Below are positions 2,865 to 59,571 of a DNA stretch of 64,000 nucleotides, piece by piece. The DNA is from Corynebacterium genitalium ATCC 33030. GTDB lineage: Bacteria; Actinomycetota; Actinomycetes; Mycobacteriales; Mycobacteriaceae. The notes beneath the pieces were generated by a model. The model was not told where the DNA came from, made no database searches, and was given only the letters and a program-made list of their open reading frames with translations. Position numbers and translations under genes: made by a program. Location of the stretch: assembly GCF_000143825.1 (NCBI RefSeq), contig NZ_CM000961.1, forward strand, positions 1,261,448 through 1,325,447, in the 5' to 3' direction. Every line of letters starts with the position of its first letter. Positions within the stretch are counted from its first letter, which is position 1.

Positions 2865-4073
2865 CTAGGATAAAACCTTCGCGGCCGAGCCCTGTTGCAC
2901 GTCCATCACGTCCAGCCCATCGTCGATAAGGTCGGCGATCGCGTTGCTCGCCTTCTCCGCCGGCACGTATGCGAGCACTGCCTGAGACATGCCGGCAGCA
3001 GCCGGGCGCGCGGCTGTGGCCCCGCGCAGCTCCAACAGCTGGATCAACTGGTCGGGCACCGAGAGGCCCGGGGTGGGGAGGGGCTGGTCGAGGACGGCGA
3101 AAAAGTCGTCGATACGCATGCTGCGTAAGGCCTTCGCTGCGGCAGCCGCTTGCTGCGTTTCCGCCTCGCTGAACGTCACCCACGCGCGCGCAGTTTCCGG
3201 GGTCGGGGCGGAGTCCGCACCGTAGACTTGGCGGCGCGCGTCGACCCACTCGACCACACGATCCACCGCTTCGGGGAGCTGGCGCAGGGAAGGTACACCG
3301 AAGTTGGCGCAGGCGTCGTCGATAAGCGTGCGACCTTCTGTGATTGCCTGATCGGCGAAAGACTCATCGGACGGAGCTGCGACCGAGAAAATTGCGACGC
3401 CCGCGCGGCTGGGGTGAGGCGCCTGGGTGAGCGAACCGTCCGAATAATCGATGACGCTCACCGATTCCTCCGCCCCGCGCAGCGCCGCCGAGTGGCGGGC
3501 ACGCAGCACCGGGACCGGCGAGAACGTCTTCGCGGATTGGCTGGCGATCTCCGCGATGCGGGTGCGCAGTGGGGCCGAGTCGATCTCTTCGTCGTCGGCG
3601 AGCAGGGCAAGCCCCAGCGCTGTATCGGCTGCGTGCAGCGCGCCAAGCCCCGACCCCAGCGGAATGTCACTGACCACGGTGATGTCCATGCCGGCGGTCT
3701 CACGCGACAGCATCTGCCTACCGACGAACGTGTGCACCAGCCCACCGAAGCGCACCGCGTAACGGCTATCCGTGTCCGGAGATTCTGTCAGCTCCGCGAC
3801 CTCCGACGTCGTGGCCGTGTCCTCAATGACCCTCGAAGCAAACTCGGCGTGGACTGAGATCGTGTCATCGGTGCGCGGGCTCACTGCCACGGCCGCCCGG
3901 TGCCAAGCCAGTCCGGCAATGGTGATCCCACCGAAGTGGTCCGCATTCTCACCCACCACGATGAACGTGCCTGGCGCATCCGCCGTGTGCTTCGGATCCC
4001 TGCTGGTGACTTCGCGGTGGACCTTGGCGATGCGCTTTGAGGCGGGGGTGAAGTCAGCAGTCCATTCGGCCAT
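2865..4073 (-). CDS. Galactokinase-like GHMP-family protein, probably degenerate
   Basis: This 402-residue protein has the layout of galactokinase, but the key motifs are altered. Motif 1 reads GENADHFGG at residues 41-49 where GEHTDYNGG is expected. The ATP loop is partly kept (DIPLGSGLGALHAAD, about 136-150). The catalytic xMDQ region appears to be RARH (191-194). The third glycine-rich motif is replaced by ARPAAAGMSQ (about 355-364). I infer a pseudo-kinase or an enzyme with another substrate. The start ATG has an AAAGGA ribosome site. There is no galactose operon nearby. Confidence 0.7.
   Translation of the reverse strand: MAEWTADFTPASKRIAKVHREVTSRDPKHTADAPGTFIVVGENADHFGGITIAGLAWHRAAVAVSPRTDDTISVHAEFASRVIEDTATTSEVAELTESPDTDSRYAVRFGGLVHTFVGRQMLSRETAGMDITVVSDIPLGSGLGALHAADTALGLALLADDEEIDSAPLRTRIAEIASQSAKTFSPVPVLRARHSAALRGAEESVSVIDYSDGSLTQAPHPSRAGVAIFSVAAPSDESFADQAITEGRTLIDDACANFGVPSLRQLPEAVDRVVEWVDARRQVYGADSAPTPETARAWVTFSEAETQQAAAAAKALRSMRIDDFFAVLDQPLPTPGLSVPDQLIQLLELRGATAARPAAAGMSQAVLAYVPAEKASNAIADLIDDGLDVMDVQQGSAAKVLS
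3317..3328 (+). repeat. CGTCGATAAGCR motif, copy 1
   Basis: The site lies inside the galactokinase-like gene on the opposite strand. Read in the gene direction it supplies the codons CTT ATC GAC GAC-type (Leu-Ile-Asp-Asp). Confidence 0.7.
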
Positions 4074-4201
4074 GACAGTCCTTTCCGAGGGGAGGATTTC
4101 TCACACAACAGTACCAACCGCGCATGTAGCCTTGAGGTGATCCCGGCGGCACGCCGGAAAGTGTTCGGCGCGAAGCCGGACAGATACTGAAAGGATCCCT
4201 T

Positions 4202-4408
4202 ATGAGCGACGAAAAGTTCTACTTCAACCCCTCCACCGGCGAAGTCACCCAGGGGAAAGTCGGCGGCTGGGATGACCGCATGGGCCCCTACGACACCCGC
4301 GAGGAAGCACAGCGCGCACTCGACACCGCCGCGGAGCGCAACAAGCGCGCCGAGGCCCAGGACGAGGCTGACGACAACTGGGGCGAGCCCGCGTCCTGGG
4401 AGAAGTAA
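4202..4408 (+). CDS. Small SPOR-like protein of actinobacteria
   Basis: This 68-residue acidic protein contains the pattern FYFNPSTGEVTQGK, then RMGPYDTREEAQRAL. The same arrangement occurs in short actinobacterial proteins often labelled SPOR-domain proteins. No signal peptide or membrane segment is visible. The function is unknown; the GPYxTREEA pattern recalls the tail of a SPOR repeat but proves nothing about peptidoglycan binding. The start is supported by an AAAGGA site 7 bases upstream. It is transcribed away from the galactokinase-like gene and toward the CYTH-CHAD gene. Confidence 0.75.
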   Translation: MSDEKFYFNPSTGEVTQGKVGGWDDRMGPYDTREEAQRALDTAAERNKRAEAQDEADDNWGEPASWEK

Positions 4409-4451
4409 GCGGTAAGGGGTGGTCCGGTCGGGTTGGCCTGGCCGGGCGGCG

Positions 4452-6173
4452 CTACTTCTTCTTGCCAGACTTGACCGGCTTGACCTTCTTGAACGCCTTC
4501 TTCACCTCAGAGATGGCGTCCGGGTACCCCTTGAGCGCCTCGTTGCCGCGGGAGATCTCCCGCTGGAAGAGCATGCCGTAGGCGAAGGTGTCCTCGCCAC
4601 GGGTGCGAGCCTCGCCGGCGATCTGCTGGATCCGGTCACGCGAGGTCACCGCGTCCTGGAAATCACCGAGGACCTCCTGGAGCTGCTTGCACGCCTTCGA
4701 CAGCTTTCCGGCGTTCAACCCACTGTCCTTGGCGGCGTTAGCGGAGTAGCGCAGCTTCTTAGCGGCTTTGCGCACGTCGTGGACGTACTCTTCACGGTCG
4801 TGAAGGGGCAGGGAGGTGTCCTGGTAATACTTCTCGGCCTTCTTCTGGCGCTTCATCAGCTTCTTGTAGCCGGTGGCGAGGTGGTCGTAGAGGATCTCCT
4901 CGGGCTCGGCGCCCTCAGACTCATCGGCTTCAGCCTCCACCTCGGGGAGCTCGAAGTCCGCGGCAGCGGAAGGGGATTCGGCGTCGAATTCGGCAGCGTC
5001 CGAACCCGGCAAGGCGTCCGGCGCTCCTGCGCCAGGCACCGGCTCCCCACCGAGTTCTGGCGACAGGGGTGGGTTGGCCAACAAGGCGTCGATGTCGTCG
5101 AGAAGCTGGAGGTAGCGGTCGGAGTCGAGGGTGCGCACGATGCGGCGGTGGGCGCGCTCGTACTCGCGGCGCATGTCGCCGCGGATGTGCTCGTCGGCAT
5201 CCGGGTCGACCATGCCGGTGTCGTCCGATTCGAGTAGGCCGACGAAGCGCTCCTCGACGACCTCGGCGTCGCGGGCGGTGCCCAGCAGGGAGGCCAGCTC
5301 CTTGAGCTCGGACTCAAGGTGGGACAGCTGCGGGCCGGCAAGGATGCCTTCGAAAGTCTCCATCAGGGAGCGAAGCTCACGGGTGGCTACGCGCATCTGG
5401 TGGACGGAATCCCATTCGTCGTTGCGGACGCGGGGATCCCACTCGACGAGCTTGTCACGTTGGGCGCGAAGCGAGTCGACGACGGCCTTAGCGGGGGAGT
5501 CGCTGGAAAGCGGCGTGACGGCGGGCGGAACCGGCGCGTTGTTCACGGAGGTGCCCAGGGCGGTGGCGAGCTTGGAAGCCGATGCGGACTTGCGTGCACC
5601 TGCGTTGATCAGCACCGTTGTGGCCTCGTGGATAAGTGCGCCGCCGTCTAGGGACTCGGCGAGGGCCGGGCCGAGCTCGACCTCCCACTCGCGCCAGGAG
5701 GTCTGCTGGCCACCGGGCAGCAAGGACCATGCGGTGACGCGGTCGTCGCAGAACTCGGCGACAACGCCGCCGTCCGCACCCAGCAGCTGTGTCTCGGCGC
5801 GGTTGTTATCGATCTGCGCGATCGGTGCGAGCGGCTCACGGCGGACAATAGCGCGCACGGCGGAGAGCAATTGAGCCGGCGGCGTGGACAGATCCTCCAG
5901 CGGCGCGTGCAGTTCCAAGCGGCCGTGGGCGGCGGGCAGCTTCAGGTGCCAGCCGTCGTCGTTGCCGCCCGAGCGCCGGCGCAGGGTGATCTTCGCGCGG
6001 GTGAGGCGCAGGTCCGCGGTGTCGTAGTAGATCGCGGACAGGCTGTGGTGCGCGGTGTGGCCGAGCCTGTCCACGCCACTCAGCGCGGACAGGTCCGGCG
6101 CTGCAACGGAATCGTCGACGGCGAATTTCGCCTCGACCTCAAGAAATGTCTCAGAACCCAGTCCAGAACTCAT
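4452..6173 (-). CDS. CYTH and CHAD domain protein (polyphosphate/triphosphate associated)
   Basis: This 573-residue protein has two domains. The N-terminal CYTH domain (about 8-200) starts with the metal/phosphate motif EVEAKFAV (E-x-E-x-K) and includes TLRRRSGG. The CHAD domain (about 235-570) has histidine- and arginine-rich helices such as VHQMRVATRELRSL and VHDVRKAAKKLRY. An acidic linker splits the CHAD part at about 365-420. Family knowledge: CYTH domains hydrolyse or bind triphosphates and CHAD domains bind polyphosphate. A GAAAGG site precedes the ATG. It is divergent from glnA2 with 114 bases between them. Confidence 0.88.
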   Translation of the reverse strand: MSSGLGSETFLEVEAKFAVDDSVAAPDLSALSGVDRLGHTAHHSLSAIYYDTADLRLTRAKITLRRRSGGNDDGWHLKLPAAHGRLELHAPLEDLSTPPAQLLSAVRAIVRREPLAPIAQIDNNRAETQLLGADGGVVAEFCDDRVTAWSLLPGGQQTSWREWEVELGPALAESLDGGALIHEATTVLINAGARKSASASKLATALGTSVNNAPVPPAVTPLSSDSPAKAVVDSLRAQRDKLVEWDPRVRNDEWDSVHQMRVATRELRSLMETFEGILAGPQLSHLESELKELASLLGTARDAEVVEERFVGLLESDDTGMVDPDADEHIRGDMRREYERAHRRIVRTLDSDRYLQLLDDIDALLANPPLSPELGGEPVPGAGAPDALPGSDAAEFDAESPSAAADFELPEVEAEADESEGAEPEEILYDHLATGYKKLMKRQKKAEKYYQDTSLPLHDREEYVHDVRKAAKKLRYSANAAKDSGLNAGKLSKACKQLQEVLGDFQDAVTSRDRIQQIAGEARTRGEDTFAYGMLFQREISRGNEALKGYPDAISEVKKAFKKVKPVKSGKKK

Positions 6174-7667: not shown

Positions 7668-10600
7668 ATGGCCCGCAAGACCTCGCCGTCACCTGCGCAA
7701 CTATCCCTCAGCAGCAAGAACGCCGCCGAGGATCTGGAGCGGCTCGGCTGGATCGACAACGACGTGCTCTACACGCTCGGCGCGGCCGGTAGCCCCGACC
7801 TGACGCTCAACACGGCGTACCGTCTCGCGGAAGCGCTCGGTGATTCCTATGAGGAGCTGCGCCAATCGCTTATCGACGATAAAACCCTCCGTGTCCGGCT
7901 CTTCGCCCTCCTAGGAGGATCGACCGCGCTCGGCGACCACCTGGTAGCCCACCCCGAGGAGTGGAAACTCCTGGCGGAGCCGTTGCCGGACAGCAGGGAG
8001 ATCTTCCACGCCATGCTCTCTGCCGTGGATGCGGTACCGGAAGACGGCGACCCGACTGCGACGCAAGAGCTGGACGCGCCGGGCACCTACCGCGCTGCTG
8101 AGGCCGGCAACGACGCGAAGCGGGCACTGAAGGATGCCTACCGCACGCTGATGATGCGGGTCGCCGCCGCTGACTTGGCGGGAACCTTTTCCTCCTTCAA
8201 GGGCGTCGGCGGGGACCAGGAGGAGCTGACGTACCGGGAGGTCACGGAGCTGCTCACCGTCATTGCCGATGCTGCGCTGACCGCAGCCTTGGCGGTGGCG
8301 ATGCGCTCCGTCCACGACGACGAGAAGGCCGACGGCAAACTGGCCGTCATCGCGATGGGCAAGTGCGGCGCCCGGGAGCTGAACTACATCTCCGACGTGG
8401 ACGTCATCTTCGTGGCCGAACCGGCTGACGCGAAGGCGACGAAGGTGGCCAGCGAGTTCACAGCCATCGGCAATTCGGCATTCTTCGACGTCGACCCGAA
8501 CCTGCGGCCGGAAGGCAAGTCCGGTGCCCTGGTGCGCACCCTCGATTCCCACGAGGCGTATTACAAGCGCTGGGCGGACACGTGGGAATTCCAAGCCCTG
8601 CTCAAGGCCCGCCCGATGACGGGCGACATGGAGCTCGGCCAGGAGTACCAGGAACGGTTGCGGCCAATGGTGTGGGAGTCGAGCCAACGCGACTCCTTCG
8701 TCGAGGATGTCCAGGCCATGCGCCGCCGGGTGCTGTCCAACGTCCCGGAAGACATGCGCACCCGCGAGCTCAAGCTGGGTTCAGGCGGCCTGCGCGATGT
8801 CGAGTTCGCCGTGCAGCTCCTCCAACTCGTGCACGGGCGTATTGACGACACCTTGCGCACCCAGAACACCATCGAATCCATTGAGGCACTTTCCGCCGGC
8901 GGGTACATCGGCCGTGAAGACTCGGCCCGGCTCATCGAAGCCTATGAGTTCCTCCGCCTGCTCGAGCACCGTCTGCAGCTGCACCGCTTCCGTCGCACCC
9001 ACACGCTGCCCGCGGAGGATGACGCGAAGAACCGCCGCTGGCTCGCCCTGACCGCAGGGTTTGTCTCCTCCCCGAAGACACCGGCCGTTGAGGCGATGGA
9101 GAAGCACCTCAAAGGCGAGCGCAAGAATATCTCCGACCTGCACTCACGCCTGTTCTACCGTCCGCTGCTCAACGCCATTGCGGGGATGAGCATCGGTGAG
9201 GCGTCGCTGACCAAGGATGCTGCCGTCGCTCAGCTCAAAGCACTCGGCTACACCCACCCGTCGCGCGCGTACGAGCACCTCACCGCCTTGGCCAAGGGGA
9301 CGTCGCGCAAAGCGAAACTGCAGGCCATTCTGCTGCCGACTCTCATGACCTACCTCGGCGACACCGCCGACCCAGATGCCGGCCTGCTCAACTACCGCAA
9401 GCTTTCAGAGGCGGCGAACGACAGGTCGTGGTTCCTGCGGATGCTTCGCGACGAAGGCGTTGTCGGTGAACGCCTCATGCACATCTTGGGGACATCCCCT
9501 TACGCGGCGAATTTGATTATCAGTGCGCCGGACGTCGTCAAGCAGTTGGGCGACGGTGCCTCGAAACCGAAACTCTTGGACACGAACCCGGACCGTGTGT
9601 ACAAGTCGCTCATCGCGGCCACGAAGCGCCACGCCGACCCGGACAAAGCCGTCAACGTGGCGAGGTCGCTGCGGCGCGCGGAACTGGCGCGCATCGCGTC
9701 GGCCGATCTGCTGGGCATGATGAGTGTGCGCGAGGTGTGCGTGCAGCTGTCGTGGGTGTGGAACGCCGTGCTTGAGGCAGGGTTGCGGGCGGAGATCCGC
9801 GCCGACCTGATCGAGCGTGAGTTAGAAGAACCGCTGGCGCACATTGCCGTGATCGGCATGGGGCGCCTTGGCGGTGAAGAACTCGGGTACGGGTCCGACG
9901 CAGACGTCATGGTCGTTGCCGAACCGAGCGAGGGTGTCGCAGAGACAGACGCGTTGGCGTGGGCAAAGAAGATCATCGACCAGATGCGCAAACGCTTGGC
10001 CAAACCGTCCAGCGACCCGCCGCTCGAAGTCGATCTGGGGCTGCGCCCTGAGGGACGTTCCGGCCCGGTGGCGCGAACCATCGCCAGCTACGAGCGCTAC
10101 TACGACGAATGGGGCGCGGTCTGGGAGAAACAAGCCCTTTTGCGGGCCACCGTGTGCGCGGGAGATGTCGAGGTGGGAAAGAACTTTCTCACAGCCATCG
10201 ACAAGTTCCGTTACCCGGAAGGTGGGGCCAGCGACGCGGAAATCAAAGAGATCCGCCGCATCAAAGCGCGCGTGGACAACGAGCGGTTGCCGCGCGGCGC
10301 CGACCGCGCCACGCACACGAAGCTCGGCCGCGGCGCGCTGTCCGATATTGAATGGACAGTCCAGCTGCTCACGATGATGCACGCCGATGCGTACGAGGAG
10401 CTGCACAACACCTCCACTTTGGAAGTGCTCGACTTCCTGGTCACAGATGAGGCGAACGGCATTATTGAGAACACGCAGGCGCGGAAGCTCACAGATGCCT
10501 GGCTCATGGCCACCGCTGCACGCAATGCGTTGGTCCTGGTCACGGGCAAACGCATCGATCAGTTGCCCGGTCCGGGGGCGCAGCTCAACCAGGTTGCAGG

Positions 10601-11079: not shown

Positions 11080-12546
11080 GTGGATTACATCTCAACGCGC
11101 GACACGTCGAAAACCCCGTACAAATTCACCGACATCCTGCTCGGTGGTCTCGCCCCGGACGGTGGCCTCTACGTGCCCGTCGCGTACCCGCGGATTACGC
11201 CCGAGCGTCTTGCGCAGTGGCGCACCCTGTTGGACGAGAAGGGTTACGCCGCTTTGGCCGCCGAAGTGGTCAAACTGTTCGTCTCCGACATCCCGCCGGT
11301 GAAGATCGAGGAGCTGACGGCCAACGCGTACCGCACCCCGGTCTTCGCCGATGAGGAAATCGTGCCGGTCACGTCGTTGGAAGACGGCATCTACCTGGCG
11401 CACCTGTCGGAGGGACCCACGGCCGCCTTCAAGGACATGGCGATGCAGCTGCTCGGCGAGTTCTTCGAGTTCGAGCTGGCGCGGCGCGAAGCCACCCTCA
11501 ATATTCTCGGCGCGACCTCCGGCGACACCGGTTCTTCTGCCGAGTACGCCATGCGCGGCCGCGACAATATCCGCGTGTTCATGCTCACTCCAGCAGGCCG
11601 CATGACCCCCTTCCAGCAAGCGCAAATGTTCGGCCTGGATGAGCCCAACATCTTCAACATCGCCCTCGACGGTGTCTTCGACGACTGTCAGGACGTAGTC
11701 AAGGAGGTCAACGCCGACGCCGCGTTCAAGGAGAAGTACTACATCGGCGCGGTGAACTCGATTAACTGGGCCCGCCTGCTCGCCCAGACGATCTACTACA
11801 TCTCCACCTACCTCAAGGTCACGGAGGCTCCAGGGGAGGGCCAGGAGCCGCAGCAGATTTCCTTCTGCGTTCCCACCGGGAACTTCGGCGATATCTGCGC
11901 AGGTCACATTACGAAGCAGATGGGGTTGCCCGTCGACAAGCTCATTGTGGCGACGAACGAGAACGATGTGCTCCACGAGTTCTTCACCACGGGCCAGTAC
12001 CGTCCGCGCTCTGCCGCGGAGACGCAGGCGACCTCCTCGCCGTCAATGGACATCTCCCGCGCATCCAACTTCGAACGCTTCATCTTCGATGTGCTCGAGC
12101 GCGACGCAGATCGCACGAGCGACCTATTCGCGGTGCAAGCGAAGGCTGACGGCTTCGAGCTCGATGACTACCTCATGGAGCAGATCCGCGCCGATTACGG
12201 GTTCCTGTCCGGAAAGTCCACGCACGCAGATCGCTTATCGACGATTCGTGCCACCCACACCGACCACGACGTCATGATCGATCCGCACACCGCAGACGGT
12301 GTCTTTGTCGCACGCGGTGTGGCGGACCGAGTGGACACCCCGATTGTCGTGCTGGAGACCGCGCTACCGGTGAAGTTCTCCGAGACCATCGTGGAAGCGA
12401 CTGGGGTGGAACCGGATGTACCGGAGCGCTTCGCGGAAATCATGCACGCGGACCGCCATGTCGTGGATATGCCGAACGACGCCGAGACCGTGAAGCAGTA
12501 CATCGCTACAATCGCCGACAGCAACGCAGCCGAGGACAACGAGTAG
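11080..12546 (+). CDS. thrC: Threonine synthase
   Basis: This 488-residue PLP enzyme converts O-phosphohomoserine to threonine. The N-terminus VDYISTRDTSKTPYKF matches the corynebacterial ThrC start. The PLP lysine is in GPTAAFKDMAMQL, and the phosphate-binding loop is GATSGDTGSSAEYA. C. glutamicum ThrC is about 481 residues. I chose GTG 11080 over the upstream GTG 11056, which would add eight residues not found in homologues. Unlike C. glutamicum hom-thrB, no other threonine gene is adjacent. A small gene follows 10 bases downstream and may be co-transcribed. Confidence 0.95.
   Translation: MDYISTRDTSKTPYKFTDILLGGLAPDGGLYVPVAYPRITPERLAQWRTLLDEKGYAALAAEVVKLFVSDIPPVKIEELTANAYRTPVFADEEIVPVTSLEDGIYLAHLSEGPTAAFKDMAMQLLGEFFEFELARREATLNILGATSGDTGSSAEYAMRGRDNIRVFMLTPAGRMTPFQQAQMFGLDEPNIFNIALDGVFDDCQDVVKEVNADAAFKEKYYIGAVNSINWARLLAQTIYYISTYLKVTEAPGEGQEPQQISFCVPTGNFGDICAGHITKQMGLPVDKLIVATNENDVLHEFFTTGQYRPRSAAETQATSSPSMDISRASNFERFIFDVLERDADRTSDLFAVQAKADGFELDDYLMEQIRADYGFLSGKSTHADRLSTIRATHTDHDVMIDPHTADGVFVARGVADRVDTPIVVLETALPVKFSETIVEATGVEPDVPERFAEIMHADRHVVDMPNDAETVKQYIATIADSNAAEDNE
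12232..12243 (-). repeat. CGTCGATAAGCR motif, copy 3
   Basis: The site is in thrC but in a different codon phase from the other coding copies: CGC TTA TCG ACG. It uses TTA, a rare leucine codon in this GC-rich sequence. Confidence 0.7.
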
Positions 12547-18965: not shown

Positions 18966-19193
18966 CTACGAGGTCAATGCCAACGTGTTTCGCGTGACCA
19001 TTGCATGCGCGACAGCTGTCGCTGCCACGGTTGCCAGGAGAGAAATCGCGAGATCGCTTATCGACGCTACCGCCAGATCCACCCCGTTCACCCCGAAAGC
19101 CTCCGGCGCCTAGGCGAACATGTTGCCCACCGCGTGAACCGCTGTGGCTGCCTCAATTCCGCGGGTGGTGTAGGTGAGGAATGCCGTGCACAG
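18966..19193 (-). pseudogene. Remnant of a CPBP-family intramembrane protease (C-terminal fragment)
   Basis: Translation of the minus strand gives AFLTYTTRGIEAATAVHAVG, then NMFA, an in-frame TAG at 19110-19112, then APEAFGVNGVDLAVAS and a hydrophobic helix. The H-A-x-x-N block and the following Pro-rich loop are typical of the last part of CPBP (Abi) proteins. No N-terminal half, no EExxxR motif and no start are present before glnA. I infer a decayed gene. This also explains most of the 320-base space between the LNWWG gene and glnA. Confidence 0.5.
19055..19066 (-). repeat. CGTCGATAAGCR motif, copy 4
   Basis: The site lies in non-functional sequence, within the decayed CPBP fragment. It is intact although the gene around it is broken. 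Confidence 0.7.
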
Positions 19194-22121: not shown

Positions 22122-22167
22122 TCCCCCACCCGCCACGTTCCTACCCCGCCCCATCCGGGACAACGAC

Positions 22168-22209
22168 AAACCCGCGGCCGCCACAAAGGGGGAGTGGGGC
22201 CGCGGGTTG
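22168..22209 (-). terminator. Hairpin downstream of the MaoC-hydratase gene
   Basis: AACCCGCGGCC (22169-22179) pairs with GGCCGCGGGTT (22198-22208). It lies 22 bases after the stop of the minus-strand MaoC gene. A weak T-rich run follows on the minus strand. Confidence 0.6.
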
Positions 22210-22210
22210 T

Positions 22211-26335: not shown

Positions 26336-28432
26336 ATGACCTCTGTTGAGGAAAAGGAAGGCCGCAAGGCCAAGCCGGAATCCCGCCAACCGCAGACGCT
26401 GCCAGAAACCCCCGATGCAGCTGTCGCGGGGAAGCTGAAGGATCTGCTTGACGGCGCATGGGGCGAGCGCAAGGACGACATCCGCGAGCAGCTCAACCGG
26501 GAAGAAGCCCTCCCGATGATCGAAGGCTCGGTTGAGGACATCCGCGCCGCCCTGCTGGAAAAGGTCAAGATGGTGGCTGGCTCCGGCATGATGCAGACCG
26601 CTTTCTCCGAAGCTAACGGCGGCTCCGGCGAGGCCCACGTGGGCATCCTGGGCCTGGACCTGCTGGGTCAGTTCAACGGCTCCCTTGCGATTAAGTCCGG
26701 TGTGCAGTTCGGACTGTGGGGCGGCGCAGTCGACGTCCTGGGCACCGAGCGTCACCGCGAGTACGCGCAAGGTGCTATGGACCTGTCCATGCTCGGCTCC
26801 TACGGCATGACCGAGCGTGGCCACGGCTCCAACGTCCAGGACCTGGAGACCACCGCGACCTATGACCCGGAGACCCAGGAGTTCATCATCCACTCTCCGT
26901 CTCCGTCGGCGACCAAGGTTTACATCGGCAACACCGCCCGCGATGGCCGCTGGTCCGCAGTCTTCGCCCAGCTCTACACCCCGGGCGAGGAAGAGTCCCA
27001 CGGTGTGCACTGCTTCGTTGTGCGCATTCGCGAGGATGACGGCTCCCCGGTCGAGGGCGTCAAGATCGGCGACCACGGCCACAAGGGCGGCCTGCTCGGT
27101 GTTGACAACGGCACCCTGACCTTCGACAACGTCCGCATCCCGCGCGAAGCGCTGCTGAACCAGTTCGGCGATGTCGACGAGGCCGGTAACTACACCTCCC
27201 CGATCGAGTCGAAGAACCGCCGCTTTTTCACCATGCTGGGCACCCTAATCCGCGGCCGTATTGCCGTCGGTGCTGCCGGCGCAGGCGCGACCAAGTCCGC
27301 ACTGGCCATTGCCACGAAATACGCGCACCAGCGCCGCCAGTTCGACTACGGTGACGCCGGCCGTGAAGACAAGCTGATCGACTACCGTGCGCACCGCCGC
27401 CGTCTGATCATCCCGCTGGCCCGCACCTACGCTATCCAGCTGCTGCAGAATCAGCTGACCCAGCGTTACGCGGATCAGACCGCACGTCAGGCATCCGGCG
27501 AGTGGTCCGTGACCGACCCGACCAAGGCGCAGGCCCTGGCATCCCGCGAGATGGAGACCCTGGCTGCAGCGTTCAAGGCCGTCGCGACCGAGCACGCCAC
27601 CGACACCATCCAGGAGTGCCGCGAGGCGTGCGGTGGTGCCGGCTTCATGTCCGAGAACCTGCTGACCACCTTCCGCGCAGACACCGATGTGTACAACACG
27701 TTCGAGGGCGACAACACCGTTCTGCTGCAGCTGGCCGGCAAGAACCTGCTCACCGCGTACACCAGCGAGATGGCTAACCCGTCTGCGATGGACATTGTGA
27801 AGTACGCCGCCACCAACGTGACGGACATCTTCCGCTCCCGCGCTGGCCTGGGTGCCACCGTCCAGTCCGTGGTGGACACGTTCGCGAGCGAAGAAGCATC
27901 GCTTTTCGACGCTGACTACCAGCTCAAGGTGATCCAGCTGCGCGAGCAGCTGGTGATGCGTTCCCTGATCCGCCGCATCCAGGGCGCACGCAAGCTGTCG
28001 CGTGCCGAGGGCGCAAAGGTCATCGACAAGGCCCAGGACCACATGCTCAACGCCGCATGGGCATACATCGAGAACCTGATGGTCCAGGCCATGATCGAAG
28101 CAGAGCGTTCCCTGCCGGTCGGCTCCACCGAGCGTGCCGTATTCGAGCAGGTCCGCCACCTGTTCGTCTTCGACACCATCATCCGCAACGCTGGCTGGTA
28201 CCAGGAGCAAAACGTCATCTCCTCCGGCCGCGTCAAGGCAGCCCGCGCCGCCATCAACGACCTGGTCGACTCGCTTGGCCCCTGGTCTGAGGTTCTCGTG
28301 GACGCTTTCGCAGTCCCGTCCGTCGTGCTCGACCGTCCGATCTTCAAGGACGGCGGCACCGACGCCTCCCGCGACAACCCGGAGGCGTGGACGGTTGGGT
28401 CCAACATCCCGACCACGGCGAAAGAGAACTAG
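26336..28432 (+). CDS. Acyl-CoA oxidase/dehydrogenase family protein
   Basis: This 698-residue flavoprotein is longer than ordinary acyl-CoA dehydrogenases (about 380) and close to acyl-CoA oxidases. SMLGSYGMTERGHGSNV is the FAD/substrate loop. CREACGGAGFMSEN and VYNTFEGDNTVLLQLAGKNL are typical of the ACOX group, with the catalytic glutamate in FEGDN. It should oxidise acyl-CoA to 2-enoyl-CoA; whether electrons go to oxygen or ETF cannot be decided here. M. tuberculosis has fadE5 at this place, which belongs to another branch as far as I recall. The start ATG follows AAAGGA. Confidence 0.88.
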   Translation: MTSVEEKEGRKAKPESRQPQTLPETPDAAVAGKLKDLLDGAWGERKDDIREQLNREEALPMIEGSVEDIRAALLEKVKMVAGSGMMQTAFSEANGGSGEAHVGILGLDLLGQFNGSLAIKSGVQFGLWGGAVDVLGTERHREYAQGAMDLSMLGSYGMTERGHGSNVQDLETTATYDPETQEFIIHSPSPSATKVYIGNTARDGRWSAVFAQLYTPGEEESHGVHCFVVRIREDDGSPVEGVKIGDHGHKGGLLGVDNGTLTFDNVRIPREALLNQFGDVDEAGNYTSPIESKNRRFFTMLGTLIRGRIAVGAAGAGATKSALAIATKYAHQRRQFDYGDAGREDKLIDYRAHRRRLIIPLARTYAIQLLQNQLTQRYADQTARQASGEWSVTDPTKAQALASREMETLAAAFKAVATEHATDTIQECREACGGAGFMSENLLTTFRADTDVYNTFEGDNTVLLQLAGKNLLTAYTSEMANPSAMDIVKYAATNVTDIFRSRAGLGATVQSVVDTFASEEASLFDADYQLKVIQLREQLVMRSLIRRIQGARKLSRAEGAKVIDKAQDHMLNAAWAYIENLMVQAMIEAERSLPVGSTERAVFEQVRHLFVFDTIIRNAGWYQEQNVISSGRVKAARAAINDLVDSLGPWSEVLVDAFAVPSVVLDRPIFKDGGTDASRDNPEAWTVGSNIPTTAKEN

Positions 28433-28665: not shown

Positions 28666-29760
28666 CTAAGCCGACGGCATAGACAGGCTCGGCATGCCCA
28701 GCGAGACAGACGGGTGGCCAGCAGAGACCACGGGAGTCTCCTGGGACGGGCCGTACTTGTTAAGCAGGGTAGAAGCTTCCTGGCCGGTCGCACCCTGGGA
28801 CGTCTGTGCGAGGTGCTTGAGGTTCTCCGGCAGTTCACGGCCGTGGAACTTCATAGCCTCAACGTAGAGTTTGCCAGCGCGGTAGGAGGAGCGAACGAGC
28901 GGGCCAGACATGACCGCAGCGAAGCCCATCTCGTATGCGGCGTCGCGGTACTCAATGAACTCCTCCGGCTTCACCCACCGCTCAATCGGGTGGAACTGCG
29001 GGCCGGGGCGGAGGTATTGGGTAATCGTGATGATGTCGGTGCCGGCTTCCTGCATGTCCTGCAGTGCCTCGAGCACCTCTTCGCGGGTCTCGCCCATACC
29101 CAGGATGAGGTTCGACTTGGTGATCAGCCCGTAGTCGCGTGCCGCCTGGATGACTTCCAGGGAACGGTCATAACGGAACGCCGGGCGGATGCGCTTGAAG
29201 ATGCGTGGCACCGTCTCCAGGTTGTGCGCGAAGACCTCCGGTTCAGCCTCGAACACCTGCTGGAGCAGGTCGGGCTTACCAGAGAAGTCAGGGGTAAGGT
29301 TCTCCACGCCGGTGTGCGGGTTGAGCTCGTGAATCTTGCGCACGACCTCGGCGTAGAGCCAAGCACCCTCGTCATCCAAGTCATCACGGGTCACGCCGGT
29401 GATGGTGGAGTAGTTCAGCTCCATCTCGCGCACAGACTCGGCGACGCGCAAGGGTTCTTCAGGGTCAAGCGGTTCCGGTTTCGCGGAATTGATCATGCAG
29501 AAATCGCAACGGCGGGAACAGTTCGCACCGCCGATGAGGAAGGTGGCCTCGCGCGATTCCCAGCACTCGTGAATGTTGGGGCAACCGGCCTCCTGGCACA
29601 CGGTGTGCAGCGACGCACCGAACACCTTGCGGCGCATGTCCTCGTACTCCGGACCCGTCTTCACCGCATTGCGGATCCACCGCGGCTTCGACTCGATGGG
29701 GGTTTGAGCGTTTCGCTTTTCGACGCGCCTTAGCTTGCGTCCTTCTTCTGCCACAGTCAC
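28666..29760 (-). CDS. lipA: Lipoyl synthase
   Basis: This 364-residue radical SAM enzyme inserts two sulfurs into octanoylated lipoyl domains. Auxiliary cluster cysteines are Cys55, Cys60 and Cys66 ([14 protein letters not shown]), and the radical SAM cysteines are Cys81, Cys85 and Cys88 (CSRRCDFC). The final RSSYRAGK segment of the family is also present. The GTG at 29760 has TAACCT exactly 7 bases upstream, suggesting a leaderless mRNA separate from lipB, which ends 59 bases upstream. Confidence 0.96.
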
Positions 29761-32177: not shown

Positions 32178-35072
<2,895 letters not shown>

Positions 35073-35132: not shown

Positions 35133-36890
35133 TTAGAACTCGTCCACAGCTGCTTCGCCGAACAGCCACGTAACGGCAATCGCGCCGGGGTCGGGCACAT
35201 CGGAGGCGGATTCGCCCAGGTAAGAGGCGCGTCCCTTCTTCGCTGCCATGCCGCGGGTCGACTTCGCGCCCTTGACTGCCGGCTCGAAAACGCGCTCCAG
35301 AACCTCATCGATGGATTCGGCGCTGGTGATGTCGGAGGCGGCCTTGGCGGCGGGAGCCAAAGCGTCGATAAGCGTGTTGTCTCCCTCCTTGGCGCCGCCG
35401 AGCTCCGTGATCGCCTCGACACCGTTGTTCAGGCCCGTCGCCAGCGTCTTCGCAAAGGCTCCCGCGCCCGCGTCGCGCGAGTCCACGCCGGTTTCAGCGA
35501 AGGCGTCGCTCATTTCGCGGAAGAACGTGCCCAGGACCGCGCCTGAGGTGCCGCCGGCACGCACGAGCATGCGGTGGGCGAAGAACTCGAGCGCTTGCTC
35601 GTCGGAGCACTTCAGCGGGGTCGTGATGTCGCCGAAAGCGGCTTCCATGTTCTGGCCGAAGTCGCCGTCGCCGGCAATGCGGTCGAGCTCGGTGAGGTCG
35701 TCGAAAGCGCCAGAGAGGCGGTCGACAAACGCGCTGAGCCACTTGTTCTTCTTGCCGTTGACCGGCTGTTCAAAATCATCCTCCATCGCAGCAAGGGCGA
35801 ACTTCGGGTTGACGGCAGCGGCGGGCCAGGCAGGGGCAGATGTCTCGGCATCGAGCAGCTCCAGCATTTCTCGGTTGACCTTCGTCAACGTCAGCGAGAC
35901 ACCGGCCATGTTCAGAGAAGTCACCAATGAGCCGCGGTAGCCGCGCTTGACCTTGATGCCCTTTTCCTCGAGCTGCTTGCACGCCTCGCCGAAAACGAGG
36001 TCGAGCTCCAGCTCGCTCGTGCCGCCCAGCCCGTTGACCAGAAGAACAACATCGGTGTTCTCCTTGACCGTGACATCGGCCTTGTTGAGGGAAGTGATGA
36101 TCCCGTCGAGCAGTTCCTCAACAAGGTTGGCTGCCGTCGGCTTCTTCACACCCGGTTTTTGCTTGCGGCGCTCAACACCAGGCTCGCCGTGGATGCCCAC
36201 ACCGATCTCGATCTCCTTCTCCTCAAGGTCGAAGGTTTGGCGGTCGCTGGTGGGCAAGTGGCCTGCCTGAAGCGCCACGGCCATGCTGCGGGACTGGTCG
36301 GCGGCCTTCTGCCCCCACTTGACCACATCTTTCAACTCATCACCGCGGGCAGCAGAAGCTCCGGCAATCTTCTCCACGATGATGGTCGCGCCGGTACCGC
36401 GCCGGCCGGGGGAGTGATCGTTGTCGATTTCAGTGGCGACATCGTCCGCCACGATGATCTGGCCAACTTCCCCCTCGACGGTGTTCGCCGCCACGGTGAA
36501 GTTCATGACGTCGCCCGTGTAGTTCTTCACCACATGGACCACACCCTTGCCGCGGTCAGCCCACTCGGTGGCGGCGATGACCTGGACGGCGTTCGGGGAG
36601 GTGAACACCAGACCTGGGCAGGCCGCGTCCAGCATGCCCTCCCCAATGAAACCGGCGTGCATCGGCTCGTGGCCGGAACCGCCGCCGGAAATCACGCCGA
36701 CCTTGCCGCGCTGATTGCTCTCTTCCTGTGTGCGTTTGCGGCCGATGAACCCTTCGCTGTGCCACTCGGCGTCCGGGTGTGCAGCAACCAGGCCACCGAT
36801 CGCCTCCTCGATGAAATCTGCCGCATCGTTTCGGAAGGATTTGAAGGTCTCGGTCTTCTTCTTTTTCGCGCTGTCCTGTGCCTTTGTCAT
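35133..36890 (-). CDS. Dihydroxyacetone kinase family protein (fused DhaK-DhaL)
   Basis: This 585-residue protein has an N-terminal DhaK domain with ISGGGSGHEPMHAGF and the substrate-binding histidine His234 in GIHGEPGVE. The C-terminal DhaL ATP domain carries the DRIAGDGDFGQNM metal/ATP motif and RAGGTSGAVLGTF. The fused form is the ATP-dependent type of the Citrobacter/eukaryotic group. The expected reaction makes dihydroxyacetone phosphate. The N-terminus is Lys-rich. It is probably co-transcribed with gcvPTH, although the metabolic link is unclear. Confidence 0.92.
   Translation of the reverse strand: MTKAQDSAKKKKTETFKSFRNDAADFIEEAIGGLVAAHPDAEWHSEGFIGRKRTQEESNQRGKVGVISGGGSGHEPMHAGFIGEGMLDAACPGLVFTSPNAVQVIAATEWADRGKGVVHVVKNYTGDVMNFTVAANTVEGEVGQIIVADDVATEIDNDHSPGRRGTGATIIVEKIAGASAARGDELKDVVKWGQKAADQSRSMAVALQAGHLPTSDRQTFDLEEKEIEIGVGIHGEPGVERRKQKPGVKKPTAANLVEELLDGIITSLNKADVTVKENTDVVLLVNGLGGTSELELDLVFGEACKQLEEKGIKVKRGYRGSLVTSLNMAGVSLTLTKVNREMLELLDAETSAPAWPAAAVNPKFALAAMEDDFEQPVNGKKNKWLSAFVDRLSGAFDDLTELDRIAGDGDFGQNMEAAFGDITTPLKCSDEQALEFFAHRMLVRAGGTSGAVLGTFFREMSDAFAETGVDSRDAGAGAFAKTLATGLNNGVEAITELGGAKEGDNTLIDALAPAAKAASDITSAESIDEVLERVFEPAVKGAKSTRGMAAKKGRASYLGESASDVPDPGAIAVTWLFGEAAVDEF
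35363..35374 (+). repeat. CGTCGATAAGCR motif, copy 9
   Basis: In the DhaL part of the kinase gene, opposite strand. The gene codons are CTT ATC GAC GCT (Leu-Ile-Asp-Ala). Confidence 0.7.
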
Positions 36891-42571: not shown

Positions 42572-43605
42572 AGCACCGGGTCGCCGCTGGCGGCTTGGTT
42601 GTCAGCCTGCTGGCTGGCCTGGGCGCGCATCTCGTCGCGCACCAAGTCCACGGCAGCTTTGACCAAGGGAAGGGTGGCGGCTCCGCCAGTTGCTTGTCCC
42701 GTGGACATGTCCAGGGCAGCCACCGGCGTGAGATCAAGTGCTTGGAGGCAGACCATGTGGCACGGTTCCGGACTCAACTGGCCGGCGAGGAGCCATTCTT
42801 TCGTCCCCGGAGCGAGGCGCTCGGCGGTGTAGGCCGCAACGGCGGTGTATGCGCCGTCGATAAGCACTGGCGTACGCCGCACCGCGCATTGCGCAATGAA
42901 CGCAGTGAGCGCAACGAAGTCCGGGGCCGAGATTCTCCGCAGCACTTCGAGGACATCCTCGCGCTGGTCGCGGACGCGGAACATGGCATCGCGCACCGCG
43001 GCGACTTTAGTCTTCCACACTTCGTCATTAATCCCGCTGCCGCGCCCAACGGCGACAGCCGGTTCCGTGAAGGTGAACGTGCCCATGACGGCAGCAGCGA
43101 CGGTGGTGTTCCCCACGCCGAGGTCACCGAGCACGATCAGATCGCTGCCCGAATCGATCTCGTGATCCGCAGCGGACTTGCCCAATTGTGCGGCGCGCTC
43201 GAACTCGTCCGGGCTCATGGCGTCGTCGACATCGATGGGGCCGGACGGGGCGTCCACGTTGACGTCGATAAGGCGCACGGATGCCCCAGCATTCCGAGCG
43301 AGCGCACACACTGGTGCCGCACCGGATTGAATTTCCTGCGCTTGCACCGCCGACGCATCGGGAGTGAACGCAGAGACGCCGCGCTGCGCAATGCCGTGGC
43401 TAGCGGCGAACACGACCACTCGCACCGTGCCCAGGGGCCTCGGTGGAGCCTCGCCTTGCCGTCCAGCCACCCACGCACCGATGCCTGCCAAGCGGCCAAA
43501 AGACAGCCCGCGCGGATTCTGTGTCAACGCTGACTGGACTGCAGCCTCCGCAGACGCGTCAGGGGCGGGGACCGGATCGAACGCGAGCGAAAGAGGAGTA
43601 GACAC
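42568..43605 (-). CDS. cobT: CobT-like nicotinate-nucleotide-dimethylbenzimidazole phosphoribosyltransferase
   Basis: This 345-residue protein has the CobT fold, including [30 protein letters not shown] and the C-terminal [11 protein letters not shown] block. The segment that normally reads GEGTGA, with the catalytic glutamate, is GQATGG here (Gln304), and SAEPGH is changed to SPEPCH. The reaction, making alpha-ribazole phosphate, may therefore be altered or lost. It starts with GTG after GAAGGGG, 14 bases downstream of the DUF3043 gene, as in mycobacteria (Rv2206-Rv2207). No cobS or cobU is adjacent. Confidence 0.85.
42855..42866 (+). repeat. CGTCGATAAGCR motif, copy 11
   Basis: In cobT, opposite strand. 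The gene codons are CTT ATC GAC GGC (Leu-Ile-Asp-Gly). Confidence 0.7.
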
Positions 43606-55267: not shown

Positions 55268-55443
55268 CACGAAGGCGCAAGCGACATTTGAACCACATAG
55301 AGCCGAGTTCTAGGACCCCTATGGTCCGGAAGCCGGGGAACCATGACTTCCCTGGGGTGAACGGGGCGCAAGGAGCGCGCAAGCGCAGGAGCGTCCTAGA
55401 GGTGACTTCCCGCACCGAACCCGACAGCTAACCCGGTAGGCGC
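55268..55443 (+). ncRNA. c-di-AMP riboswitch (ydaO/yuaA class)
   Basis: The leader of the first NlpC/P60 gene contains the conserved pieces of the ydaO class: AGCCGAGTTC (55301-55310), GGGGAACCAT, GGGGTGAACGGGG and, near the 3' end, CCGAACCCGACAGCTAACC followed by CGGTAGGCGC. The 3' end lies 23 bases before the GTG start. In actinobacteria this class controls cell-wall hydrolase genes. The 5' limit is approximate. A promoter with TTGGAC and TAACCT (55220-55250) would produce a transcript containing the full element. Confidence 0.88.
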
Positions 55444-55466
55444 AACTGGAGATATGGAGTTTATAA

Positions 55467-56210: not shown

Positions 56211-56246
56211 CGCAGCACCTGCCGCAGGAACTTCCGCGGCGTACCT

Positions 56247-56292
56247 AAAACCGGTCTGGAGCCTCGGGGCTCGGGCCGGTTTTGGCTCTTTA
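56247..56292 (+). terminator. Terminator after the first NlpC/P60 gene
   Basis: AAAACCGG (56247-56254) pairs with CCGGTTTT (56276-56283), with an inner AGCC/GGCT stem, followed by GGCTCTTT. Confidence 0.75.
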
Positions 56293-56435
56293 TCGCACAA
56301 TTGTCACAACAGTAACAGAGTGGAGCTTTTTGGCACTTTAGTCTGTCCAAAGTGTTTGACCGGCGCGGGCGGACGCTATAGCTTTGTTACAGGTTTGTCA
56401 TCTTTTCCTTCATGTTCTTTCAGAAAGAGGTCCTC

Positions 56436-57464: not shown

Positions 57465-57483
57465 GCGCTAAGGCATCTGCGCC

Positions 57484-58626: not shown

Positions 58627-58632
58627 TCTGTC

Positions 58633-59571
58633 ATGGTCACAATCGGATTCGACATTGGCGGGACGAATACGCGCGCTGGTGTCGTCGATAAGCACGGCGA
58701 CATCGTGGACGTGGAGGAAACTCATACTCCCCACGACGCGGACGGACTGACTCACGCCATCGTCGAACTGGTGGAAGTTTTGCGCCGCAGGCATTCCATC
58801 GGCGCTGTCGGTCTCGCCGTCGCCGGTTTCTTGGATCCGGACTGTGAAGTGGTCCGTTTCGCTCCGCACCTACCGTGGCAGGACAACGCGCCAGTGAAGC
58901 AGCTGCTGGAAGAAGAGCTGGAGTTGCCGGTATGCCTGGAGCATGATGCGAACGCCGCGGCGTGGGGCGAATACCGCTACGGTGCCGCCCAGGACGCAGA
59001 CACGTGGGTGTTCTTTGCCGTGGGTACAGGCATTGGTGCAACACTCATGCATCACGGTGAGATCTACCGCGGTTCTTTTGGTACCGCACCCGAATTCGGT
59101 CACATCACCGTCGTCCAAGGTGGGCGTGCATGCTCCTGCGGGAAACAAGGGTGCTTGGAGCGCTATGCCTCTGGCACTGCGCTGGTGGACACCGCCGTTG
59201 AGATTGCTACGAAGGGTGGATTTGAACCCTGCACGCTGTACCGCAGGGCCGTCGATAAGCGCGCGACTGGCAACGATGTTGTCGCTGCCGCACGCAACGG
59301 CGATGCGCTGGCGCTAGCAACAATGGATGACTTTGCGTGCTGGCTCGGACAGGGTCTTTCCATCGTGAGCGACGTGCTCGACCCGGAGTTGATCGTGCTG
59401 GGCGGGGGAGTGAGCGCGGATGCTGACCTGTTCCTCGATGCTGCGCACGAAGCCATGCGTCGCAACATGGTCGGATCCGGCTTCCGCCCGATTCCACGTC
59501 TGCAAACTGCGGACCTTGGACCGCAGGCAGGTATGATTGGCGTTGCTGATTTGGCCCGCAAACTTCTTTAG
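58633..59571 (+). CDS. glk: ROK-family glucokinase
   Basis: This 312-residue sugar kinase has the ATP motif IGFDIGGTNTRAGVVD, the substrate motif EHDANAAAWGE, FGTAPEFGHITV and the ROK zinc motif CSCGKQGCLE. It phosphorylates glucose with ATP. It lies 6 bases after pimB', so it may also be co-transcribed. C. glutamicum has glk at the same place. It contains two copies of the CGTCGATAAGCR motif. Confidence 0.92.
   Translation: MVTIGFDIGGTNTRAGVVDKHGDIVDVEETHTPHDADGLTHAIVELVEVLRRRHSIGAVGLAVAGFLDPDCEVVRFAPHLPWQDNAPVKQLLEEELELPVCLEHDANAAAWGEYRYGAAQDADTWVFFAVGTGIGATLMHHGEIYRGSFGTAPEFGHITVVQGGRACSCGKQGCLERYASGTALVDTAVEIATKGGFEPCTLYRRAVDKRATGNDVVAAARNGDALALATMDDFACWLGQGLSIVSDVLDPELIVLGGGVSADADLFLDAAHEAMRRNMVGSGFRPIPRLQTADLGPQAGMIGVADLARKLL
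58683..58694 (+). repeat. CGTCGATAAGCR motif, copy 12
   Basis: In glk on the coding strand: GTC GAT AAG CAC (Val-Asp-Lys-His). Confidence 0.7.
59250..59261 (+). repeat. CGTCGATAAGCR motif, copy 13
   Basis: In glk on the coding strand: GTC GAT AAG CGC (Val-Asp-Lys-Arg), 567 bases after copy 12. Confidence 0.7.

What the first reader, a model, noticed from the sequence alone, without database searches (positions are those of the whole stretch)
3317..59261. A 12-mer, CGTCGATAAGCR, is scattered through the window far above chance
Thirteen exact copies occur, at 3317+, 7867-, 12232-, 19055-, 22110-, 22211+, 31694+, 33983-, 35363+, 37597-, 42855+, 58683+ and 59250+ (starts; sign is strand). The 10-base core alone is expected about 0.1 times in 64 kb at this composition. 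All copies are preceded by C and followed by A or G. Coding copies use at least four codon phases or senses (CTT ATC GAC, CGC TTA TCG, TCG ATA AGC, GTC GAT AAG), including the rare codons TTA and ATA. Three lie in non-coding sequence, one inside a decayed gene. Two CGTCGATAAGG near-copies are at 2931 and 43263. This points to selection on DNA: a chromosome-organising protein site, a DNA-uptake-like sequence or another genome-wide signal. Mixed orientation argues against a KOPS-like polar motif.
Basis: partly seen in the sequence, partly recalled or inferred. Interest (0 to 1): 0.75.

Follow-up and report, generated by a model that had tools for sequence, protein, structure and literature searches.

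The report
Genus-wide repeated DNA tag in Corynebacterium
Many Corynebacterium genomes carry hundreds to over a thousand copies of one short, directional DNA tag, conserved at the DNA level and existing in species 'dialects', which looks most like the self-recognition tags some other bacteria use when taking up DNA, although that function is untested here.

Summary
All 13 copies stand (0.01 expected); the whole genome holds 389 CGTCGATAAGCR, 527 CGTCGATAAGC and 1165 CGTCGRNAAGC (reversed controls 0, 0, 29). CGTCGATAAGC is iterated in 103 of 151 Corynebacterium genomes. Eight genomes use a predicted, then confirmed dialect, CATCGRNAAGC (566-850 copies); about 41 show neither. The 140 genomes sampled from 30 other genera of the family have at most ~61 per Mb (here 496). 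Most synonymous codons in the motif are over-conserved, but not at its free or dialect positions. No strand polarity over the 1.11 Mb mapped; sparse in the two phages and three plasmids tested; RecC absent from 151 of 151 genomes. Best reading: a DNA-uptake-sequence-like self tag (0.47). Against it, comEC and tad genes also occur where the motif is missing, two motif-rich drafts lack a clear tad ATPase, and no receptor was found. Chi-like (AdnAB) and chromosome-organising roles stay open. The named searches found no earlier report.

The parts
3275..3328 (+). 42-nt G-rich tract (3275-3316) + CGTCGATAAGCG
   Evidence: G19/C9
7867..7920 (-). CGTCGATAAGCG with tract 7879-7920
   Evidence: G15/C9
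12232..12285 (-). CGTCGATAAGCG with tract 12244-12285
   Evidence: G17/C8
19055..19108 (-). CGTCGATAAGCG with tract 19067-19108; outside called genes
   Evidence: G21/C8
22110..22163 (-). CGTCGATAAGCA with tract 22122-22163; outside called genes
   Evidence: G24/C6
22169..22222 (+). tract 22169-22210 + CGTCGATAAGCG; outside called genes
   Evidence: G19/C12
31652..31705 (+). tract 31652-31693 + CGTCGATAAGCG
   Evidence: G17/C13
33983..34036 (-). CGTCGATAAGCA with tract 33995-34036
   Evidence: G20/C7
35321..35374 (+). tract 35321-35362 + CGTCGATAAGCG
   Evidence: G20/C10
37597..37650 (-). CGTCGATAAGCA with tract 37609-37650
   Evidence: G16/C12
42813..42866 (+). tract 42813-42854 + CGTCGATAAGCA
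   Evidence: G19/C12
58641..58694 (+). tract 58641-58682 + CGTCGATAAGCA
   Evidence: G15/C9
59208..59261 (+). tract 59208-59249 + CGTCGATAAGCG
   Evidence: G14/C11
2921..2931 (+). CGTCGATAAGG near-copy WITHOUT the G tract (G10/C18): perhaps a bystander
43263..43273 (+). CGTCGATAAGG near-copy with weak tract (G17/C12)
2287..2297 (-). variant CGTCGGGAAGC, tract 2298-2339 (G21/C7)
5096..5106 (+). variant CGTCGAGAAGC, tract G18/C8
6786..6796 (+). variant CGTCGACAAGC, tract G14/C10
7272..7282 (-). variant CGTCGAGAAGC, tract G21/C8
11931..11941 (+). variant CGTCGACAAGC, tract G13/C10
15705..15715 (+). variant CGTCGGCAAGC, tract G18/C13
25696..25706 (+). variant CGTCGAAAAGC, no tract (G11/C18): perhaps chance
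27901..27911 (-). variant CGTCGAAAAGC, no tract (G13/C13): perhaps chance
29715..29725 (-). variant CGTCGAAAAGC, tract G18/C6
29891..29901 (+). variant CGTCGACAAGC, tract G22/C7
40237..40247 (+). variant CGTCGGCAAGC, tract G19/C9
47450..47460 (+). variant CGTCGAAAAGC, tract G15/C10
62859..62869 (+). variant CGTCGAAAAGC, tract G23/C10
63874..63884 (-). variant CGTCGAGAAGC, tract G18/C8
1651..1661 (+). CATCGAGAAGC, the other dialect's form (G17/C12); only 37 CATCGRNAAGC in this genome
24614..24624 (+). CATCGAGAAGC, no tract (G12/C12): perhaps chance
34976..34986 (+). CATCGACAAGC, tract G17/C7

Best explanation
The element is a polar, bipartite ~53-bp DNA signal: about 42 nt that are G-rich and C-poor on one strand, followed 3' by CGTCGATAAGC(R), with loosened consensus CRTCGRNAAGC. 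It is kept in hundreds to more than a thousand copies across the chromosomes of most Corynebacterium species sampled. SHOWN by the calls: iteration, tract, DNA-level conservation, no strand polarity over the 1.11 Mb mapped, dialect switches, repeated absence, rarity in the few phages and plasmids tested. INFERRED: it is a self-recognition tag of the DNA-uptake-sequence (DUS/USS) kind. A surface or envelope DNA receptor of a tad-pilus/ComEA/ComEC uptake machine would bind the tag in incoming DNA in either orientation, favour DNA of the same dialect, and thereby let tags spread by biased uptake and recombination. The G-rich arm would be an extra contact or shape determinant, as flanking tracts are in Pasteurellaceae USS (recalled).
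For: Density 1165 CGTCGRNAAGC in 2.35 Mb, of the order reported for Neisseria DUS (about 1900 in 2.2-2.3 Mb; PMC3630211, passages). Random orientation over 1.11 Mb. Both senses and non-coding, same tract. Codon conservation. Dialect CATCGRNAAGC predicted from 80 kb of one genome and found at 566-850 copies in 8 of 151 genomes; at least 4 changes of this dialect on a ComEC tree. Not seen in 140 genomes of 30 other genera of the family. Rare in phages BFK20 and phi673 (1 in 87.5 kb) and plasmids pTET3 and pCG4 (4 in 56 kb); on pTP10, 3 of 4 copies lie in its chromosomal-type pyrD-uppP-mshC segment. ComEC core in 151 of 151 genomes; T2SSE (tad-type) ATPase over the cut-off in 145 of 151. Pfam confirms ComEA (SLBB + HhH), the ComEC core, T2SSE, T2SSF and DUF4244 in this genome; the TadF-like frame is below cut-off and the TadE-like frame has no match. 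In the actinobacterium Micrococcus luteus, ComEA and Tad ATPases are described as competence-related (PMC6667448, passages).
Against: com and tad genes do not track the motif. They are present in motif-less genomes, including zg-331, the motif-poor sister of C. lowii and C. oculi. Conversely, motif-rich drafts G021 (251 copies) and G075 (586 copies) show only a sub-cut-off T2SSE match, and the incomplete motif-rich draft G119 none. No residue of ComEA's DNA-binding domain cleanly separates the dialects, and no protein of the tad or comEC loci is an outlier between sister dialect clades, so no receptor is identified. My searches found no report of natural transformation in Corynebacterium, though the library is partial. 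Close pairs as in neisserial terminators are not enriched (gaps <500 bp: 10 against 17 expected). The tract is weak in some genomes (G149, G111, G056, G013). A 42-nt strand-asymmetric tract has no counterpart in DUS that I know of.
Confidence: 0.47

Rival explanations
1. Chi-like self tag: a directional site read by the AdnAB helicase-nuclease (or another end-processing enzyme), which stops degrading and loads RecA on the strand 5' of the site, where the G-rich tract lies.
For: Polar element; the tract lies on the side where RecA would load after a Chi-type switch (recalled); rare in the phages and plasmids tested. Neighbouring PDDEXK_1 frames of about 1050-1100 aa, AdnAB-like by inference, exist in this genome at C1:17512-21556. 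RecA's preference for GT-rich DNA is recalled, not tested.
Against: RecC has no match in 151 of 151 genomes, so no RecBCD-Chi. PDDEXK_1 matches occur in 35 of 35 genomes tested, motif-less ones included. No strand bias over 1.11 Mb (excursion p 0.48), whereas known Chi sites are usually biased (recalled). Known Chi sites are 5-8 nt (recalled).
Confidence: 0.18
2. Chromosome-organising or nucleoid site: a DNA-binding protein occupies the tags and shapes, segregates or marks host DNA against foreign DNA.
For: Genome-wide, near-random spacing (CV 1.04 over 1.11 Mb), strong DNA-level conservation, rarity in mobile DNA.
Against: Known sites of this kind (parS, matS, Noc sites) are palindromic and regionally placed, and KOPS is strand-polarised (recalled); this motif is asymmetric and shows neither pattern. 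Near-loss and dialect switches among close relatives are odd for a housekeeping organiser.
Confidence: 0.16
3. RNA-level signal (for example Rho utilisation on the C-rich complementary strand, or a regulatory motif).
For: The complementary strand is GCTTATCGACG followed by a C-rich, G-poor stretch, rut-like in composition. Antisense copies outnumber sense ones (571 + 20 + 13 against 207 + 55 + 6).
Against: The same tract is found at sense, antisense and non-coding sites (G .45/.44/.45), and orientation to genes is mixed: 51 coding copies, 31 antisense and 20 sense.
Confidence: 0.03
4. Residue of a mobile element, codon bias or mutational hotspot, without function.
For: High copy number; most coding copies use two frames (VDK sense, LID antisense).
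Against: Beyond the tract I saw no shared flanking sequence. Non-preferred codons are kept mainly inside the motif (CTT 74% vs 27%, TCG 89% vs 42%), while GAT, whose third base is the free position, is not (32% vs 45%). Reversed-pattern control 0.
Confidence: 0.03

Closest known systems
Neisserial DNA uptake sequence (DUS) and its dialects
   Same: Short motif in about a thousand copies or more, inside genes and between them; eight dialects described, each conserved within its species; a ComP tree largely congruent with dialects (Frye 2013, PMC3630211: abstract and passages). Atypical DUS distribution has been used to find integrated mobile elements (PMC7371117, abstract).
   Different: Actinobacterial host with tad-type pilus genes; a 42-nt G-rich arm; no enrichment of close pairs; no ComP-like receptor found; no uptake assay.
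Pasteurellaceae uptake signal sequence (USS) (recalled, not read)
   Same: Short core plus flanking compositional tracts on one side, so an extended bipartite signal.
   Different: USS flanks are AT-rich and helically spaced; here the tract is G-rich, about 42 nt, and nearly continuous.
Chi sites of RecBCD/AddAB (recalled)
   Same: Polar self tag of the host chromosome.
   Different: No RecC in the genus sample; no strand bias over 1.11 Mb; far longer signal; dialects within one genus.
KOPS / parS / matS / HIP1-type genome motifs (recalled)
   Same: Iterated chromosomal motifs selected at DNA level.
   Different: Here neither strand-polarised nor palindromic, and accompanied by a long asymmetric tract.

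Membership tests
DNA uptake sequence (DUS/USS) | Short motif iterated far above chance over the whole genome | tested here: met
   1165 CGTCGRNAAGC vs 29 control; 527 exact 11-mers vs 0
DNA uptake sequence (DUS/USS) | Asymmetric motif in both orientations, no replication polarity | tested here: met
   194/195 genome-wide; excursion p 0.48 over the 1.11 Mb mapped
DNA uptake sequence (DUS/USS) | Selection on DNA, independent of coding sense | tested here: met
   (locus pairs not independent)
DNA uptake sequence (DUS/USS) | Depleted in mobile, foreign DNA | tested here: met
   small sample: 2 phages and 3 plasmids; hosts' own chromosomes were proxied by C. gallinarum and C. striatum ATCC 6940; GC content of these records is lower
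DNA uptake sequence (DUS/USS) | Host has a DNA-uptake machine | tested here: inconclusive
   comEC 151 of 151, T2SSE over cut-off 145 of 151, but also in motif-less genomes, and two motif-rich drafts lack a clear T2SSE; competence itself unknown
DNA uptake sequence (DUS/USS) | Tag raises uptake or transformation | not testable with these tools
   needs an uptake assay
DNA uptake sequence (DUS/USS) | Dedicated receptor (ComP-like) that co-varies with dialect | tested here: inconclusive
   ComEA and tad proteins show no clean covariation; other proteins not examined
Chi site (RecBCD) | RecBCD present | tested here: not met
   RecC 0 of 151
Chi-like site (AdnAB) | Enzyme present where the motif is and absent or altered where it is not | tested here: inconclusive
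   PDDEXK_1 matches in 35 of 35, with and without motif; sequence differences not studied
KOPS | Strand bias relative to replication | tested here: not met
   (1.11 Mb; no origin needed for the excursion test)
parS/matS/Noc-type organiser | Palindromic, regionally clustered site | tested here: not met
   asymmetric; spacing CV 1.04 over 1.11 Mb

The most novel reading that the evidence does not exclude
Corynebacterium has its own DNA self-recognition system: a dialect-forming, bipartite 53-bp tag with a strand-asymmetric G-rich arm, read by an unidentified receptor unlike ComP. It would evolve by repeated dialect switches and losses and partition gene exchange among skin, environmental and industrial species. 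It would be the first uptake-type signal outside the proteobacterial groups where such signals are known (that last comparison is recalled).
Probability: 0.4. Interest if true: 0.92.

Novelty: new variant of a known kind. Interest (0 to 1): 0.83.

Why it matters
If it is an uptake tag, Corynebacterium would have natural transformation with species-specific gating. That would give a way to make non-model strains transformable and to predict which species exchange genes. If it is instead an AdnAB or nucleoid signal, it would be the first known genome-wide recognition sequence for that machinery in actinobacteria (recalled). Either way, a signal present here at about one copy per 2 kb, with dialects across much of a well-studied genus, deserves a protein. 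Motif-poor zg-331 beside motif-rich C. lowii and C. oculi, and the sister clades of the C. tuberculostearicum complex with different dialects, are ready-made comparisons for finding it.

Tried and rejected
Long versus short ComEC. Motif-poor genomes more often have a long ComEC frame (>=640 aa 12 rich/30 poor; <640 aa 90/18; n=150, G001 dropped because its row was not in the printed list). I first took this for a nuclease domain. Pfam shows no metallo-beta-lactamase domain in the one short and two long forms tested, and the association follows clades, so it is dropped.

ComEA residues (K/S and A/K columns) first looked dialect-linked in 8 A and 11 G genomes. A 102-row alignment removed this (the C. 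tuberculostearicum 'G' dialect has the 'A' residue).

Outlier proteins of the tad and comEC loci between sister dialect clades: none; identities of the A-clade reference to the G clade 66-96%.

Triplet code in the G tract: the 3-nt rhythm follows the codon register (sense1 and anti1 sites shift it), so I read it as codon structure. The 130 'non-coding' sites keep the rhythm too (G .35/.53/.36 upstream.29/.39/.29 downstream), which I put down to genes my caller missed; not proven.

Loss of tad or com in zg-331: not seen.

Samples in which no related word led: G014, G132, G084, G030; in G148 CGTCGATAA is raised (9 copies) without a tract.

Literature: exact-letter search found 3 unrelated papers (listing only). 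Other searches: (listings). Read: PMC3630211 (abstract, passages), PMC7371117 (abstract), PMC6667448 (passages).

Limits: the gene calls are my own crude ones (coding 74.6%, 82.8%). Sites were collapsed to distinct flanks. Locus pairs are not independent. Dialect labels on the tree mix whole-genome and local counts, and it is a one-gene tree.
Full report
Observation. In an order-3 Markov comparison of words with 6 or more copies, the motif's words have the highest observed/expected ratio at every length from 8 to 12. The window lies at C1:1261448-1325447 of a single-contig 2,349,853-bp genome holding 194 + 195 CGTCGATAAGCR; the same letters read backwards occur 0 times. CGTCGATAAGC occurs 265 + 262 times and CGTCGRNAAGC 558 + 607 times, control 29. 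A single-mismatch count in 264 kb shows which positions are rigid: positions 0-4, 9 and 10 almost never vary (0-4 substituted copies each against 66 exact), positions 5 and 7 little (3 and 5), position 8 has 13 (10 of them C), and position 6 takes any base (T 66, A 16, C 14, G 12).

The missed half. Aligning 112 distinct sites shows that the stretch from -1 to about -42 on the motif strand is G-rich and C-poor, returning to background downstream. In a scan of G000 8-mers (8-300 copies, at most 4 Gs) for upstream G-C skew, the motif's words lead at t = 17.6. The tract is the same at 29 antisense, 18 sense and 18 non-coding or edge sites (G .44/.45/.45, C .20/.19/.21). Pooled over 71 loci it is shared by the dialects (CGTCGATAAGC n=144, CATCGRNAAGC n=88, other CGTCGR[ACG]AAGC n=245), but it is weak in some genomes (skew z 1.1 in G149 for exact copies, 0.3-0.7 in G013 and G056). 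Over 1040 distinct sites G is 0.71 at -2, dips at -6 to -10, is 0.69 at -11, and is 0.50-0.69 at every third base from -11 to -35. The rhythm follows the reading frame where the frame is known. In the window all 13 exact copies have more G than C in the 42 nt; the near-copy at 2921 does not (G10/C18), which suggests a bystander.

Selection on DNA. In homologous comEC regions of 72 loci, CRTCGRNAAGC windows are identical in 1088 of 2085 comparisons at 80-85% identity against 16% of background 11-mers; the excess is small below 75% identity (8.2% vs 4.9% at 70-75%). Given a conserved amino acid, motif codons are identical in 79.8% at 80-85% identity against 51.3% expected from the same codons elsewhere (65.1% vs 46.7% at 75-80%). 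By codon at 75-90% identity: CTT 74% vs 27%, GTC 82% vs 55%, TCG 89% vs 42%, AGC 100% vs 58%, ATA 5 of 5 vs 33%, AAG 99% vs 91%. No excess: ATC 81% vs 80%, GAC 77% vs 77% (its third base is the G/A dialect position), GAT 32% vs 45% (its third base is the free position, a built-in control). The pairs share ancestry, so the totals are not independent observations.

Distribution. Among 151 genomes of the genus, 103 have 20 or more CGTCGATAAGC (up to 686) and 48 have fewer than 15, with none between. A word seen in 80 kb of one poor genome, G006 (CATCGGCAAGC, 7 copies), predicted a dialect CATCGRNAAGC. Genome-wide it has 566-850 copies in 8 of 151 genomes (G006, G053, G094, G105, G111, G138, G143, G144), 97-145 in G073, G074, G084 and G036, and 10-93 in the other 139. 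Seven of the 8 were among the 48 poor genomes, leaving 41 low for both words. Further variants lead in samples: CGTCGGCAAGC in G056, CGTCGRYAA in G013, CGTCGNNAAKC in G048; none in G014, G132, G084, G030. Named species, CRTCGRNAAGC totals (37 genomes): C. pilosum 1344, C. stercoris 1252, C. gottingense 1158, C. glaucum 1099, C. gallinarum 1044, C. minutissimum 879, C. sp. KPL1814 829, C. tuberculostearicum 760, C. striatum 741, C. macginleyi 397. Intermediate: C. sp. HMSC04H06 191. Low: C. marambiense 140, C. meridianum 121, C. uropygiale 119, C. pygosceleis 116, C. sp. 13CS0277 84, C. sp. SN15 68, C. phocae 59, C. spheniscorum 43; Arthrobacter bussei 90 and a Micrococcaceae MAG 59 for comparison. 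The 16 other genomes of that call have 521-1029. In the family draw, 7 of 11 Corynebacterium genomes have 660 or more CGTCGRNAAGC and 4 have 40 or fewer. None of 140 genomes of 30 other genera exceeds about 61 per Mb (G250: 276, control 52), against 496 per Mb here. Beyond the family only those two genomes were looked at. On a ComEC tree of 60 rows the A dialect needs at least 4 changes, and absence 8 by parsimony (4 forced by well-supported branches). C. sp. zg-331 has 4 CRTCGRNAAGC in 101 kb, where C. lowii (627 in 2.4 Mb) and C. oculi (521 in 2.4 Mb) would predict about 22-26.

Orientation and placement. Over the first 1.11 Mb there are 99 forward and 100 reverse CGTCGATAAGCR. The cumulative strand excursion is ordinary (17, permutation p 0.48), spacing is near random (CV 1.04), and close pairs are not enriched (10 gaps under 500 bp against 17 expected). 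Of 66 exact 11-mers in 264 kb, 31 are antisense, 20 sense and 15 outside my gene calls.

Foreign DNA. Phage BFK20 has 1 CRTCGRNAAGC in 43.0 kb, phi673 0 in 44.5 kb; pTET3 3 in 27 kb, pCG4 1 in 29 kb, pTP10 4 in 50 kb, three of these inside its chromosomal-type pyrD-uppP-mshC segment. At the density of C. gallinarum the two phages would hold about 29 and pTET3 + pCG4 about 19. C. glutamicum itself was not counted, and these records are lower in GC.

Mechanism. The pattern (asymmetric, orientation-free, genic, DNA-selected, dialect-forming, rare in foreign DNA) resembles DNA uptake sequences (PMC3630211: abstract and passages). The gene kit exists: the ComEC core in 151 of 151, a T2SSE ATPase over the cut-off in 145 of 151, a ComEA frame in all 20 comEC regions examined, with domains confirmed here. 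In Micrococcus luteus ComEA and Tad ATPases are described as competence-related (PMC6667448, passages). Against it: the same genes persist where the motif is absent or nearly lost; motif-rich drafts G021 and G075 have only sub-cut-off T2SSE matches and incomplete G119 none; and no protein examined co-varies with dialect. The receptor is unknown, and a Chi-like role with AdnAB and an organiser role stay open. RecBCD-Chi is excluded in so far as RecC has no match in 151 of 151. PDDEXK_1 (AdnAB-type) matches occur in 35 of 35 genomes regardless of the motif.

Verdict. A real signal across much of the genus, unreported as far as the named searches go. It works most like a DNA uptake sequence. I do not file it as a member of that family, because its effect on uptake and its receptor are untested.

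Noticed in passing
window 836-1261 (+): RNase P RNA class A.
   Followed up: no
window 55291-55457 (+): c-di-AMP (ydaO/yuaA) riboswitch.
   Followed up: no
L112-L115 (G133): A motif-poor Corynebacterium iterates a different word, the palindrome TGCACGTGCA within GATGCACGTGCATC (17 TGCACGTGCAT in 80 kb, z 148): perhaps another genome-wide signal.
   Followed up: no
L104-L107, L071 (G128): Palindrome CAGGTACCTG iterated (10 CAGGTACCTGA in 97 kb).
   Followed up: no
L088-L091, L077 (G062, C. marambiense): Words repeated 76-78 times in 97 kb, perhaps a long CRISPR-like array.
   Followed up: no
L189 and L232 (C. phoceense): ComEA and ComEC look fragmentary (116-aa and 285-aa frames) although 606 motif copies remain: recent loss or assembly error.
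   Followed up: partly
L045-L048 (G029): Repeat family with AGTTGTTAGGAAGT-type words, 6 copies in 80 kb.
   Followed up: no
L242 8609-13582 (pTP10): Resistance plasmid pTP10 carries a chromosomal-type pyrD-uppP-mshC segment holding 3 of its 4 tags: tag density may help trace inserts.
   Followed up: partly
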